A DNA stretch of 64,000 nucleotides from Achromobacter aloeverae (lineage in GTDB: Bacteria; Pseudomonadota; Gammaproteobacteria; Burkholderiales; Burkholderiaceae_B): positions 930,001 through 994,000 of the forward strand of contig NZ_PYAL01000001.1 in NCBI RefSeq assembly GCF_004121055.1, read 5' to 3'. The notes beneath the pieces were generated by a model that had not been told where the DNA came from, searched no databases, and saw only the letters and a program-made list of their open reading frames with translations. Each line of letters starts with the position of its first letter. Positions within the stretch are counted from its first letter, which is position 1. Position numbers and translations under genes: made by a program. Below are positions 8,269-13,814 of the stretch, piece by piece.

Positions 8269-9171
8269 ATGTGGTTCAAGAATCTGAAGATATACCGTCT
8301 CTCCGCGCCCTGGACCGTCATGGGCGACGCCTTGGAAGACGCACTCGCCAAGTTCGCCTATCAAGGCGGCAATAACCTGGAAATGCAGAGCCTGGGGTGG
8401 ATCGCCCCGCGCGAAAATGGCGGCCTGGCGCATGTCGTCAACGGCCAGATCCTGCTCTCCCTGCGTGCCGAAAAGAAACTGCTGCCGGCGACCGTCGTGA
8501 ACCAGGTGACCAAGGCCCGCGCCCAGGAAATCGAGGAACAGCAAGGCTACAAGCCCGGCCGCAAGCAGATGAAGGAAATCAAGGAGCGCGTCACCGACGA
8601 GCTGCTCCCCAAGGCCTTCAGCATCTATCGCGACACCCGCGTGTGGATCGATCCACGGAATCACTGGCTGGTCATCGATGCCGCCGCGTCGGCCAAGGCC
8701 GACGAGGTGCTGGGCCTGCTGGCAAAGACCATCGATCCCTTCCCGGTCGAAGGGCTGTACGTCAACCAGTCGCCCGCCTCGGCCATGACGGGCTGGCTGG
8801 CCGCCGACGAAGCGCCGTCGAACTTCAGCATCGACCAGGACACCGAGCTGAAATCCTCCGGCGACAGCGGCGCGGCCATCCGCTACGTCAAGCACTCCAT
8901 CGACACCGACGACGTGCGCCGCCACATCCAGAACGGCAAGCAATGCACCCGCCTGGCCATGACCTGGTCGGACCGCATCTCCTTCGTCCTCACGGAAGGC
9001 CTGGACGTCAAGCGGGTCGCGCCCCTGGACGTATTGAAGGAGAACACCGACGCCATGGCGCAGAACGACGACGAGAAGTTCGACTCCGACATGGCGCTCA
9101 TGACGGGCGAACTGTCCAAGCTGATGGCCGAGCTGGTCGAGGCACTGGGCGGCGAAAAGAAAGGGATCTGA
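8269..9171 (+). CDS. rdgC: Recombination-associated protein RdgC
   Basis: RdgC is a ring-shaped dsDNA-binding protein that restrains RecA-mediated recombination. The 300-residue length and the start [11 protein letters not shown] match the family. Further family signatures are [24 protein letters not shown], the [16 protein letters not shown] segment, [16 protein letters not shown], and a C-terminal helical [21 protein letters not shown]. It is a single gene with its own start, divergent from the small membrane-protein gene. Confidence 0.95.
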
Positions 9172-9203
9172 GCCCGCGCGCGGGCACGGGATCTGACAAA
9201 TAC

Positions 9204-9263
9204 TTAATAGCCAGTCATTTCCAGGTATCCCGACCCGCCCGTCGACAGCCGCACCGGTCCTTC
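9204..9263 (-). pseudogene. Severed C-terminal tail of the AttH-like protein
   Basis: Immediately after the TAG stop of the preceding reading frame, in the same frame, 19 more codons read EGPVRLSTGGSGYLEMTGY and end at TAA (9206-9204). With a Trp codon in place of the TAG, the sequence would be PYWEGPVRLS...GYLEMTGY, the usual ending of this family. A TGG-to-TAG change explains it in one step. Confidence 0.8.
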
Positions 9264-10526
9264 CTAATAGGGAAAGGACGTCCCCATCCAGGCCTTGGGC
9301 TGCAAGGCGTCGACCGTGATGTCCACCTCGCCGTTGACATCGCCGGCGGCCTCGCCGCCGGTCACGCCGGCGATCCGCACGCGCCAGCGCGTAGGCACCT
9401 GGCGGCCATCGTCCTGGCGGCTCCACGCCAGGGCTTCCAACCGGACCTGGTCGCCGCGCAAGACGGTGGCGCGCCCATCCGCGTCTATCCACGTTCCCGC
9501 CCGATACGGTTCGCCGTTCGCCTGGCGCACCTGGAACAGCATCACCTTGGCGCCGGAAGCCAGGTGCAGGGAAAACCAGTCCCATCCCCGCTGGTCGGCG
9601 GACAAGGGCTGGCTGCTCCACTCGCGATCCAGCCACGCCCTGCCCTGTACCCGATGCACCTTGCCCGCGCGCTCCACTTCGCCGTTGACCCGGTAGAACG
9701 GCTGGCTGTAGTAATACGAAGCCTGTCCCTGCCCCGATTTCTCGCTATAACCGCCGTCGCCATGAAGCACCAGGGGACCGTCGGCCGTCAGGTCCAGGCT
9801 GTAGCGGAAGTCCTTGCCGCTCGCCTGCATGGTGAGGTGGTCGAAGTCCGGCCCCCGCAAGGACCAGTCATCTATCCAGGCGTTGAACGATGGCGGCGGC
9901 ATGGCGGACGCCTGCGAGGACACGGTCTCGGCGCCGGACACGGAGGGGTGCCGGGCGTCGGCCGGCGCCCGCACGATCACCCCGGCCTGCCCGATGCCGC
10001 CGCGCGCGAACTTCTCGGCGAACTGATGGGCGCTCGCATCGGTGAGGGCCGCATGGGCCATCCAGGCATTCGGGCTGTCCCACCCGGCCTGCTCGGCGCC
10101 GGGCCGCAAGGCCGAGCGGAACAGGGTCCATTGGACGCCCCAATCGTGCCCATCCTCGTCCTTCAGGTCCGCCGTCACGTACCACCATTCGATGCGATAC
10201 CCGTCATGCGGCCCGTGGTCGGCGGGAAAAACCAGGGGCCGGCCGCGCATGACGCGCGCATACGCGTCGGCGTCGCGTCCCAGGCCCGCATAGCCCGCGC
10301 GCGACGCCGGCGGCGCGGCAGCATCGTCACAACCGCCAAGCAGGCCGACCAGGAGCAGAAGGGCCATGAGCGCGCGGGCTACGGGTCGCGCGCGGGCTAC
10401 GGGTCGCGGGCGGGCCGCGAGTCGGCGGACCATCGACGGGCGGGAGCCGACCAGGCGGGCGCACGGCATGGCCAGCAGCCTCGCCGCGGAACGGATCCAG
10501 GAAAAGTCCCGCCTATTACGTCTCAT
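9264..10526 (-). CDS. AttH/CrtC-like lipocalin-fold lipoprotein, truncated by a nonsense codon
   Basis: Secreted protein of the AttH / carotenoid 1,2-hydratase-like family. Conserved segments are YRIEWWYVTADLKDEDG, WGVQWTLFRSAL, WMAHAALTD, and RAWLDREWSSQPL. A membrane-targeting segment ends in LLGGC at residue 66, a lipobox, so it should be a lipoprotein. The region before it is unusually long (about 53 residues) and contains an 18-bp duplication encoding ARPVAR twice, so the true start may be the in-frame ATG at 10433. The gene overlaps the permease gene by 11 bp. The frame stops at PY-TAG, 19 codons short of the natural end, so activity is doubtful unless the stop is read through. Confidence 0.75.
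   Translation of the reverse strand: MRRNRRDFSWIRSAARLLAMPCARLVGSRPSMVRRLAARPRPVARARPVARALMALLLLVGLLGGCDDAAAPPASRAGYAGLGRDADAYARVMRGRPLVFPADHGPHDGYRIEWWYVTADLKDEDGHDWGVQWTLFRSALRPGAEQAGWDSPNAWMAHAALTDASAHQFAEKFARGGIGQAGVIVRAPADARHPSVSGAETVSSQASAMPPPSFNAWIDDWSLRGPDFDHLTMQASGKDFRYSLDLTADGPLVLHGDGGYSEKSGQGQASYYYSQPFYRVNGEVERAGKVHRVQGRAWLDREWSSQPLSADQRGWDWFSLHLASGAKVMLFQVRQANGEPYRAGTWIDADGRATVLRGDQVRLEALAWSRQDDGRQVPTRWRVRIAGVTGGEAAGDVNGEVDITVDALQPKAWMGTSFPY
10372..10407. repeat. In-frame 18-bp tandem duplication in the AttH-like N-terminus
   Basis: GCGCGGGCTACGGGTCGC occurs twice back to back (10372-10389 and 10390-10407). On the minus strand this encodes two copies of ARPVAR just before the hydrophobic signal segment. 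It lengthens the basic n-region without changing frame. Confidence 0.7.
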
Positions 10527-13119
10527 CGGCGAACTGCCTGATCAACTCCGCCGGCTGCCGGCGCCGCAACTGCCACACCGGCCATGCGGCCGCCAGCAGG
10601 CTCGTCAGCAGGCCCAGCATCCCCAGCGTCAACAACTGCGATGGGAAGACATACAGCGGAAGCCGCCAGCCGAAGGCCTGCACATTGACTACCGCCACCA
10701 GCGTCCACGCCAGCAGCACGCCCAGGGGCATGGCGCATAGCACCGTCATCGAGGACAGCGTCAGCACCTGGCCCAGCGCCAGCCAGGCCAGGCGGCGGCG
10801 CGGCACGCCCAGCGCCCACAGCGGCGCCAGTTGCGCCAACCGTCCCTGGCTCAGCGTCAGCAGGCTGATGAACAAGGCGATCCCCGCCACGCCCAGCGTC
10901 AACGCGTTCAGCGCGCCAGTGGCGGCGAAGGTGCGTTCGAATACTTGCGTGGACCACAGCTTGATCGACGCCTGCTCGGCGACTTGCATGCCCTCCCCCG
11001 CATAACGCTGCTCCAGCGCCGCCCGCAGCATCGCGACGACGTGCTCGCCAGCGCCGGGCGCGGAGGCCGCATAGACGTTCACGCTGCGCAACACCGCTGC
11101 CGGATCCCGCCGCCGCAATACGTCGGCGTCCATCAGCACATGCCCGCGCGGATTGCCGTAATCGGCGTAACGGGCCACCACGGTAAACATGGATGACGGC
11201 GCCGACGCCCCGGCCGCGCCCGCGCCCAGGTCGAGCGCATCCCCCAGCCGCAGCCCCAGCCGTCGCGCCAACTGCTCGCTCACCATCACGCCGCGCCCGG
11301 CCGCGACCTGCCGCCACGCATCGGCCGACTGCTCCAGCAGGGGCCATTGCCGCGCGGTCTCGGGGTCATCGACGACGCCCTGCAACTCCACGGGCCAGCC
11401 CCGTACCTGCGTGGCGGCACGCCACTGCGGCAGCGCCGCGCGCACGTCGGATCGCGTCCGCAGCCATTGCACGGCTTCGACACCCTGGGCGCTGTCGCGC
11501 GGGTTCAGATAAATGTCGGCGGACAGGCGCTGGTCCAACCACCCAACGAAGGTCTTGCGAAAACCTTCGGTCATGCCGCCCACGCCCACGCTGGCGCCCA
11601 GGGCCAGCAACAGGGCCATCAAGGCCAGGCTCAAGGCCGGCAATTGCTGCCGGCTGTCGGCGATGAACCACGATGCCAGGGGCCCGCCCGCGTGCCGCGC
11701 GCCCCAGGCCAGCATCGCGTCCAGCAAGACGGGAAGCAGCAAGGCCGAGGCCAGCAGGATTGCCGCCTGCATCGCGAACGCCGTCGCCAGGCTGTCGCCC
11801 GCCAGCGCGCACGCGATCGCGAATGCCGCCAGCAGGGCGGCCTGCAGTACGTGGCGCCGCTGCCGCGACGCCTGCGCGCCGCGCCACGCCTGCGGCCGCG
11901 CGATGGCCAGCAGGGGCAGGCGGGACGCGCGCCAAAGGCTGCCGGCGCCCGCAGCCAGCGCGCCCAGCAGGGTCATGCCCATGCCTGCCCACCACCACCA
12001 GGCCGGCAGGCTCAGGTGTCCCGCCACCTCCGCGCCATACAAGCCGCGCAAGCTGGCGGCCATATTGCCCAGCAATAGTCCCGCCAGCACATAGCCGCTG
12101 GCGACGCCGGCCACCCCGCCCACCAGTGCGAACGCACCCAGTTCGACCGCCAGCGCGGCCATCAGCGCTCGCAGGCTCACGCCGCATGCCCGCAAGGTGC
12201 GCAACAGGGACCGGCGCTGCTCCAGGGCAAGGCCGATGGACGCATGCACGATGAACAGTCCCACGATGAAGGCGAGCATGCCCAGCGCCGTGAGATTGAG
12301 ATGGAAGCTTTCGGTCAGGCGTCCAAGATCGTCGCGGTCGTCGGCGCGCGCCAACACCAGTTGGTCGGACCACGGCGCGGGAGGCGCGAATTCGGCGCCC
12401 GCTCCCGCCGCCTGGCTTGCGCCGGCCACCAGCAGGCGCGACACCTTGCCCGGCTCGCGCAGCAGCGCTTGCGCATGGCCGATATCCGTCACCAGCACGC
12501 CCGGCGCCAGATCGGGTTGCACGTGCAGCACAGGCAGTTCCTTGCCGTCCAGCGTCACGGGCCTGGGACCCGCCCCCTGGCCATCCTTGCCCGCCATCCG
12601 GTCCTCTCCCGAGCCCTCTTTCGCCCCCTCTCGCTCGCCACCGCGCCAGCTTTCCGCCAAGCCCAGCCGCCGCACCGTATCCGGTCCGGCCCACACCTGC
12701 CCCGGCTCGCCGATGAACGTAGCCATATCGAAGGCCTTGGCGACCTGCCCCGCCACCGCCGTTCCGGGCGGCAGGCTGAACGGCTCGATGCCCATCACCC
12801 GCAGCGTCACGGGCGGCGTACCGGGAAACCGCAGCGAGCCCTCCAGCACGGGCGATACCTGCCATCCGGCGAGGCGCAGCCGCACGTAGACGTCCTGGTC
12901 GATAAAGTTGCCGTGGCGCGGCAGCCATTGCGTCTGCGCCGGTCCCAGCAGCACCGCGCTGGCGCGCGCATAATCGGCCCTGGCCTGCGCATTCAGGGCC
13001 TGGACGCCGCTCCACAGGGCCGTCGCCAGCCACAGGCCGCACGCGATGCTGGCGCATTGCAGGGGATGCCGGCGCCAATGGCCGGCCAGGGCCCGCATGC
13101 AGGAAAGAAATGCCCGCAT
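10516..13119 (-). CDS. ABC transporter permease, FtsX family (fused AttF/AttG type)
   Basis: An 867-residue inner-membrane protein. A first membrane segment lies near 18-38, followed by a large periplasmic region, a multi-helix FtsX core from about 285 onward (LNLTALGMLAFIVGLFIVHASI), a second extracytoplasmic domain, and a second FtsX core near the C-terminus (LTLGVAGIALFISLLTLSQG). This two-module layout matches FtsX-type permeases that work with MacB-like ATPases and do not import small solutes. The ATPase stop and this start share one base (TGATG), so they are coupled. The AttH-like gene follows, giving an AttEFGH-like operon. An earlier in-frame start inside the ATPase gene was rejected. 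Confidence 0.85.
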   Translation of the reverse strand: MRAFLSCMRALAGHWRRHPLQCASIACGLWLATALWSGVQALNAQARADYARASAVLLGPAQTQWLPRHGNFIDQDVYVRLRLAGWQVSPVLEGSLRFPGTPPVTLRVMGIEPFSLPPGTAVAGQVAKAFDMATFIGEPGQVWAGPDTVRRLGLAESWRGGEREGAKEGSGEDRMAGKDGQGAGPRPVTLDGKELPVLHVQPDLAPGVLVTDIGHAQALLREPGKVSRLLVAGASQAAGAGAEFAPPAPWSDQLVLARADDRDDLGRLTESFHLNLTALGMLAFIVGLFIVHASIGLALEQRRSLLRTLRACGVSLRALMAALAVELGAFALVGGVAGVASGYVLAGLLLGNMAASLRGLYGAEVAGHLSLPAWWWWAGMGMTLLGALAAGAGSLWRASRLPLLAIARPQAWRGAQASRQRRHVLQAALLAAFAIACALAGDSLATAFAMQAAILLASALLLPVLLDAMLAWGARHAGGPLASWFIADSRQQLPALSLALMALLLALGASVGVGGMTEGFRKTFVGWLDQRLSADIYLNPRDSAQGVEAVQWLRTRSDVRAALPQWRAATQVRGWPVELQGVVDDPETARQWPLLEQSADAWRQVAAGRGVMVSEQLARRLGLRLGDALDLGAGAAGASAPSSMFTVVARYADYGNPRGHVLMDADVLRRRDPAAVLRSVNVYAASAPGAGEHVVAMLRAALEQRYAGEGMQVAEQASIKLWSTQVFERTFAATGALNALTLGVAGIALFISLLTLSQGRLAQLAPLWALGVPRRRLAWLALGQVLTLSSMTVLCAMPLGVLLAWTLVAVVNVQAFGWRLPLYVFPSQLLTLGMLGLLTSLLAAAWPVWQLRRRQPAELIRQFADET

Positions 13120-13814
13120 CACATCCGCGCCGCCGTCGACGTGGCATCGGCATCGCCGTCGCCGCGGACCTGCCCCAGATGCAGGGTCACCCGCCGCGAC
13201 AGGCGCGCCGCCATGCGCATGCTGTGCGTGACCATGAGCAGGCTGCTGCCCGCGTCGCGCACCAGCGCCAGCAGCAGGTCCAGCACGGCATCGCTGCTGC
13301 CCTCGTCCAGGCTGCCGGTCGGCTCGTCCGCCAGCACCAGGCCCGGCCGGCTGGCCAGCGCGCGCCCGATGGCCACGCGCTGCTGCTGGCCACCGGACAA
13401 CTGCTCGGGATAGCGCGCCAACAGGGGCGCCAGTCCCAGGCGCTGCGCCAGGTGCTCGCTCCATGCCGCATCGTGGCGGCCCGCCAGGCGCGCCTGGAAA
13501 TCCAGGTTGGCCGCCACATCGAGGCTGCCGATCAGGTTGTACTGCTGGAACACCAGGCCGATGCCCGTTCGGCGCCACTGCGCGAGGCCCGCTTCGCGCC
13601 GCGCATGCAGCACCTCGCCGTGGACCCGTACGCAACCGCTGTCGGGGTAATCCAGGCCGGCGACCAGGTGCAGCAAGGTGCTCTTGCCGCTGCCGGACTC
13701 GCCGGTCAACGCCAGGCTTTCCCCCGCATCCAGGCGCAGGTTCACGCCGCGCAACACCGGCAGGCGGCCCTGCGCGGTAACGAACGATTTATGCAGATCC
13801 TCGACGACAAGCAC
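13119..13814 (-). CDS. ABC transporter ATP-binding protein (LolD/MacB type, AttE-like)
   Basis: A 231-residue nucleotide-binding subunit. Walker A is GESGSGKST, the Q-loop lies in GIGLVFQQYNLIGSLDV, the signature is LSGGQQQRVAIGRAL, Walker B is LVLADEPTGSLDE, and the H-loop is in MVTHS. The sequence LADEPTGSLD is typical of the LolD/FtsE/MacB subclass. I chose a GTG start at 13814 because it begins MLVVEDLHKSF with GGAGA 8 bp upstream; the nearby ATG is out of frame. It is first gene of the attE-attFG-attH-like operon. Confidence 0.88.
   Translation of the reverse strand: MLVVEDLHKSFVTAQGRLPVLRGVNLRLDAGESLALTGESGSGKSTLLHLVAGLDYPDSGCVRVHGEVLHARREAGLAQWRRTGIGLVFQQYNLIGSLDVAANLDFQARLAGRHDAAWSEHLAQRLGLAPLLARYPEQLSGGQQQRVAIGRALASRPGLVLADEPTGSLDEGSSDAVLDLLLALVRDAGSSLLMVTHSMRMAARLSRRVTLHLGQVRGDGDADATSTAARM

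What the first reader, a model, noticed from the sequence alone, without database searches (positions are those of the whole stretch)
9204..9270. Apparent TGG-to-TAG nonsense change severs the conserved end of an AttH/CrtC-like protein
The frame reads ...TSFPY-TAG and continues in the same frame for 19 codons as EGPVRLS...GYLEMTGY-TAA. Restoring Trp gives PYWEGPVR...GYLEMTGY, which is the family ending. The rest of the gene and its ABC-transporter partners look intact, so either decay is very recent, the base is a sequencing error, or the stop is suppressed or read through.
Basis: partly seen in the sequence, partly recalled or inferred. Interest (0 to 1): 0.7.

Follow-up and report, generated by a model that had tools for sequence, protein, structure and literature searches.

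The report
Private stop codon truncates CrtC-like lipoprotein
In this bacterium one gene for a lipid-binding-type surface protein stops 20 amino acids early, at a spot where every relative examined has tryptophan; it looks like an ordinary recent loss-of-function change or a sequencing error, not a new genetic mechanism.

Summary
On the minus strand a 420-codon CrtC/AttH-type lipoprotein ORF ends at TAG (9264-9266). The same frame continues for 19 codons, EGPVRLSTGGSGYLEMTGY, to TAA (9204-9206). All 96 distinct relatives examined, including the 5 other genomes held for the genus, have Trp at the TAG and the family ending beyond it. In a predicted orthologue the missing 20 residues form the last beta-hairpin of the second lipocalin barrel; solved relatives align out to the same end. 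The Lipocalin_9 match falls from 1-131 to 1-107 of 131 positions.

The lesion is private and isolated. In 800 kb of the genome it was the only internal stop that passed a coding-flank filter and lay in a real gene. TAG is an ordinary terminator there and no CUA-anticodon tRNA was found. The gene body shows no excess of amino-acid changes.

Most likely this is a recent nonsense mutation giving a truncated, probably non-functional protein. A consensus base error cannot be excluded without reads. Functional read-through has no positive support but is not excluded. Low interest: a new instance of a known kind.

The parts
9264..10526 (-). Truncated CrtC/AttH-type lipoprotein ORF, 420 aa (ATG 10526-10524, TAG 9266-9264)
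   Evidence: Pfam CrtC residues 112-305 and Lipocalin_9 residues 308-420, the latter covering only profile 1-107 of 131; lipoprotein Cys66 aligned in all 16 rows
9264..9266 (-). In-frame TAG at a column that is Trp in all relatives examined
   Evidence: 87 of 87 close rows (85 distinct) and 11 of 11 order-level loci
9207..9263 (-). 19-codon conserved continuation EGPVRLSTGGSGYLEMTGY, untranslated unless the stop is read through
   Evidence: Matches the ending of the relatives; differences from the five congeners lie mostly at third codon positions
9204..9206 (-). TAA, the position of the family's usual stop codon
   Evidence: the 87 close rows end there with TGA (38), TAG (33) or TAA (16) (one of them a codon later)
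10516..13119 (-). FtsX/MacB-type ABC permease, 867 aa, overlapping the start of the CrtC-like ORF by 11 bases
   Evidence: Pfam FtsX and MacB_PCD on the longest ORF; start at MRAFLSC placed, start and stop codons checked
13119..13814 (-). ABC transporter ATP-binding protein (start codon uncertain; core placed from VLVVEDLHKSF)
   Evidence: Pfam ABC_tran; best NCBIfam relatives YbbA, DevA and LolD, all below their cut-offs
8269..9171 (+). rdgC, convergent neighbour downstream (not part of the operon)
   Evidence: Pfam RdgC

Best explanation
A single-base nonsense change, private to this genome and recent, has turned a Trp codon near the 3' end of an ABC-transporter-associated CrtC/AttH-type lipoprotein gene into TAG. 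Shown: the stop, the conserved continuation, Trp in every relative examined, and no other lesion seen in the gene. Inferred: RF1 terminates there, the protein lacks the last beta-hairpin of its C-terminal lipocalin barrel, folds poorly or is degraded, and the transporter loses its lipoprotein partner. The gene is last in its presumed operon and no second copy was found, so the upstream ABC genes should be unaffected and nothing obvious compensates.
For: Trp at the column in all 96 distinct relatives examined. The five congeners all lack the stop (for the set, for the residues). One match to the protein in the own genome, so no paralogue was found. In a scan of 440 conserved ORFs (170,789 codons) four internal stops passed a coding-flank filter: this one, and three in two ORFs that are antisense to genes with Pfam domains. 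The tail corresponds to strands 433-441 and 444-451 of the orthologue model, with the TAG column at residue 434, and the 14 best-ranked solved structures, all of this fold, have aligned ranges that reach residue 453. Lipocalin_9 88 bits against 123-128 in three orthologues. Private changes in the gene body are 18 nonsynonymous and 28 synonymous, not different from three relatives pooled (Fisher p=0.47), so decay had not advanced.
Against: No reads, sister strain or expression data, so the base itself is unverified. The loss-of-function step rests on structure prediction of moderate quality (mean pLDDT 66) and on conservation. AlphaFold still models most of the truncated protein much as before; besides leader and loops only the last six residues fall under pLDDT 50. 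The timing test on the tail is weak: two private amino-acid changes, P=0.10 under neutrality along the whole branch.
Confidence: 0.62

Rival explanations
1. The base is a consensus error in the assembly and the real gene is intact.
For: The stop is seen in one genome only and the rest of the gene is open and constrained. An isolated single-base oddity with no other sign of decay is what an error would look like.
Against: The assembly gives no other sign of errors in what was scanned: in 800 kb no other internal stop that passed the filter stands in a real gene. The scan does not cover stops near ORF ends or in genes under 55% identity. In 400 kb, 11 frameshift candidates were listed; in 10 the out-of-frame piece ends within the first 90 codons of a stop-to-stop ORF, where an upstream gene can overlap, and the eleventh is at 61-62% identity; none was resolved further.
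Confidence: 0.2
2. The TAG is real, but the protein without its last hairpin is still functional in this species (adaptive or neutral C-terminal trimming).
For: Both domains are otherwise matched and no relaxed constraint is seen in the body.
Against: The ending is kept in all 96 distinct relatives examined and the aligned ranges of the 14 best solved structures reach it. If the change is recent, body constraint says nothing about function after it.
Confidence: 0.1
3. The TAG is read through by near-cognate decoding or a suppressor, so some full-length protein is made.
For: The tail keeps a coding-like pattern against G004: differences at codon positions 1, 2, 3 are 2, 0, 9. A survey argues that read-through of in-frame stops is frequent in prokaryotes (PMC7918605, abstract start and passages).
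Against: The stop is not shared with any relative examined, whereas that survey kept only stops found at the same place in two or more genomes. None of 44 tRNAs nor the tRNA-Sec has a CUA anticodon, and only one Trp tRNA was found. TAG ends 48 of 263 conserved genes scored. The tail pattern would look the same under a recent mutation.
Confidence: 0.08

Closest known systems
AttH-like / CrtC-fold proteins (Pfam PF07143 CrtC plus PF17186 Lipocalin_9; solved relative 2ICH, NE1406 of Nitrosomonas europaea)
   Different: The window copy stops 20 residues before the family end; 24 of 131 Lipocalin_9 positions are missing.
Single-nonsense (nascent) pseudogenes of bacteria (kind recalled)
   Same: One in-frame stop at a conserved codon, conserved sequence continuing beyond it, stop private to one genome.
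   Different: Nothing distinctive; the lesion is very near the 3' end, so most of the protein would still be made.
In-frame stops proposed to be read through in prokaryotes (PMC7918605)
   Same: In-frame TAG with homologous sequence at least 10 codons on both sides.
   Different: That study required the stop in two or more genomes (passages); here it occurs in 1 of 97 distinct loci, the window included.

Membership tests
CrtC/AttH-type two-domain lipoprotein | N-terminal CrtC lipocalin domain | tested here: met
   PF07143, 183.9 bits against cut-off 22.5, profile 1-168 of 168
CrtC/AttH-type two-domain lipoprotein | Complete C-terminal Lipocalin_9 domain | tested here: not met
   Over the cut-off (88.4 against 26.2 bits) but profile 1-107 of 131; three orthologues 1-131 of 131, 123-128 bits
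CrtC/AttH-type two-domain lipoprotein | C-terminal YWEG...GYLExTGY ending inside the ORF | tested here: not met
   Beyond the TAG in the window; present in 98 of 98 relative rows, 96 distinct
CrtC/AttH-type two-domain lipoprotein | Lipoprotein-type leader with invariant Cys | tested here: met
   C66 invariant in the 16 rows aligned; no signal-peptide program was run
CrtC/AttH-type two-domain lipoprotein | Neighbouring Lol/MacB-type ABC transporter genes | tested here: met
   ABC_tran and FtsX/MacB_PCD genes directly upstream, overlapping starts and stops
Nascent pseudogene | Disrupting lesion absent from relatives | tested here: met
   0 of 96 distinct relatives has the stop
Nascent pseudogene | Loss of constraint after the lesion | tested here: inconclusive
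   Body shows none (Fisher p=0.47); tail too short, P=0.10
Nascent pseudogene | No functional product | not testable with these tools
   Needs protein or phenotype data
Evolved stop-codon read-through | Stop kept at the same position in more than one species | tested here: not met
   Not in the five congeners nor in any other relative examined
Evolved stop-codon read-through | Suppressor tRNA with CUA anticodon | tested here: inconclusive
   None among 44 tRNAs plus tRNA-Sec, but tRNA-Ser(UGA) was not found either, so the scan may miss some
TAG reassigned as a sense codon | Many in-frame TAGs at sense positions in conserved genes | tested here: not met
   One case in a real gene in 170,789 codons after filtering; TAG ends 48 of 263 conserved genes scored

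The most novel reading that the evidence does not exclude
The TAG is decoded at a useful rate in this species, so that two forms of the lipoprotein are made, a truncated one and a full-length one carrying the closing hairpin, and their ratio tunes the ABC transporter.
Probability: 0.05. Interest if true: 0.5.

Novelty: new member of a known kind. Interest (0 to 1): 0.13.

Why it matters
As a recent loss it is a small, clean example of a nonsense change caught before other decay, in a conserved but poorly understood ABC-transporter/lipocalin operon. Automatic annotation could easily take the gene for a slightly shorter intact protein; the comparison shows that the end is missing. It matters little beyond that unless translation past the stop is demonstrated.

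Tried and rejected
Natural end at PY in relatives: looked for, 0 of 96 distinct loci.

TAG reassignment or a noisy assembly: two scans of conserved ORFs (at least 55% identity, at least 80 codons aligned), own genome against G004, 400 kb (209 ORFs, 80,960 codons, 30 raw internal stops, 1 passing) and 800 kb including those 400 (440 ORFs, 170,789 codons, 70 raw, 4 passing). The filter wants at least 20 aligned codons before and 10 after the stop, half of the residues identical and third-position changes in excess; the 66 stops that failed it were not studied one by one. One of the four is this TAG. The other three lie in two ORFs opposite open frames of 495 and 392 codons, which carry a BPD_transp_2 permease domain and GntR plus FCD domains, while the two other long frames tested there carry none. 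An open frame of 721 codons also lies opposite the present gene, so opposite length alone decides nothing; here the Pfam domains are on the minus strand. The reverse reading (own ORFs in G004) gave 170 raw stops and 4 passing, not followed up. Searches were earlier, less filtered versions (one search's output was cut); no count is taken from them.

Frameshift scan (400 kb): 11 candidates in own, 12 in G004. In 10 of the 11 the out-of-frame piece ends within the first 90 codons; the other is at 61-62% identity. None was resolved, so I claim no frameshift count.

Suppressor tRNA: none found; sensitivity limit noted. Promoter- or terminator-like sites at 9100-9400: none. Timing of the mutation from the tail: too few sites. 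The first dN/dS run used over-long ABC and FtsX frames; one search replaces it for those genes. NCBIfam gives the CrtC-like protein no name. A paper search for AttH, lipocalin, ABC transporter and FtsX (three of four terms) listed only the 2ICH paper.

Full report
What is there. On the minus strand a CrtC/AttH-type lipoprotein gene starts at 10526 and its frame is closed by TAG at 9264-9266; 19 further codons (EGPVRLSTGGSGYLEMTGY) lead to TAA at 9204-9206. The 420-aa product has Pfam CrtC (183.9 bits) and Lipocalin_9 (88.4 bits) domains. It follows an ABC ATPase and an FtsX/MacB-type permease on the same strand, the permease end and the lipoprotein start overlapping by 11 bases, and it converges on rdgC. 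The window lies in a 6.49-Mb genome of 13 contigs. The nearest named relatives by this protein are Bordetella sp. LUAb4 and Achromobacter sp. HZ34 (records of the own genome may be left out there), whose loci are the same sequences as those of G004 and G003.

Comparison. I examined 7 close loci and 11 order-level loci (all 18 relatives with a match among 60 searched) and the best 80 of 154 loci found in the species-level genome collection. Two pairs are identical, leaving 96 distinct relatives. In 87 of 87 close rows (85 distinct) the TAG column is Trp and the protein ends GYLE[M/I]TGY (one with an extra Q); in 11 of 11 order-level rows the motif YWEG...GYLE[L/M]TGY is present. All five other genomes held for the genus have the intact form. 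Only 18 of the 60 relatives have the gene, so it is patchy at family and order level, and the own genome has a single match.

Is the genome otherwise sound, and is TAG a stop in it? Reading conserved G004 ORFs in 800 kb of the own contig C5 (about 12% of the genome) gave 440 ORFs and 170,789 codons with 70 raw internal stops. Four passed a filter for coding-like flanks. One is this TAG. The other three are in two ORFs antisense to genes with Pfam domains. The reverse reading had 170 raw and 4 passing stops, not followed up. TAG ends 48 of 263 conserved genes scored. ARAGORN on the 44 tRNA places and the tRNA-Sec found no CUA anticodon and a single Trp tRNA, which could hardly be spared to mutate into a suppressor; tRNA-Ser(UGA) was not found, so the list may be incomplete.

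Has the gene been decaying? Changes private to this genome, against G002, G003 and G004, are 28 synonymous and 18 nonsynonymous in the gene body (three relatives pooled: 80 and 39, p=0.47) and 91 and 64 in the permease (p=0.87 between the two genes). In rdgC the own genome has 33 and 11, its relatives 19-22 and 0-3, so the own branch is longer or slightly less constrained elsewhere too. The tail has 1 synonymous and 2 nonsynonymous private changes; if it had been neutral along the whole branch about 5.3 nonsynonymous ones would be expected, P=0.10. That hints at a recent stop but is not significant. Read-through would leave the same pattern.

Conclusion. A real, recent, private nonsense change that removes the closing hairpin of the C-terminal barrel is the best explanation (0.62). 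A consensus base error is next (0.2) and cannot be tested without reads. Functional truncation (0.1) and read-through (0.08) remain possible. A survey of in-frame stops (PMC7918605, passages only) argues for frequent read-through in prokaryotes, but it required the stop in two or more genomes to exclude errors; this case would not have qualified.

Noticed in passing
L002 (G000:C8:55765-55907): A second stretch 75% identical to the 3' part of rdgC (window 8900-9041) lies on another contig, about 1.7 kb from a tRNA-Lys gene (C8:54030-54102); perhaps a mobile-element copy of rdgC.
   Followed up: no
L035 (CAMAXE010000023.1): A metagenome-assembled record labelled Klebsiella pneumoniae carries an orthologue 60-61% identical to the window protein, while the other named loci are mostly Pseudomonas and the Bordetella group; the label or the bin may be wrong.
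   Followed up: no
window 10379-10414: Two direct copies of an 18-base unit (ctacgggtcgcg[c/g]gcggg) lie in the leader-coding part of the CrtC-like ORF and repeat an Arg-Pro-Val-Ala-Arg-Ala stretch not seen in the other 15 aligned rows.
   Followed up: partly
G000 tRNA set: A tRNA-Sec gene is present (C9:451899-451990), while no tRNA-Ser(UGA) was recovered by the tRNA search.
   Followed up: no
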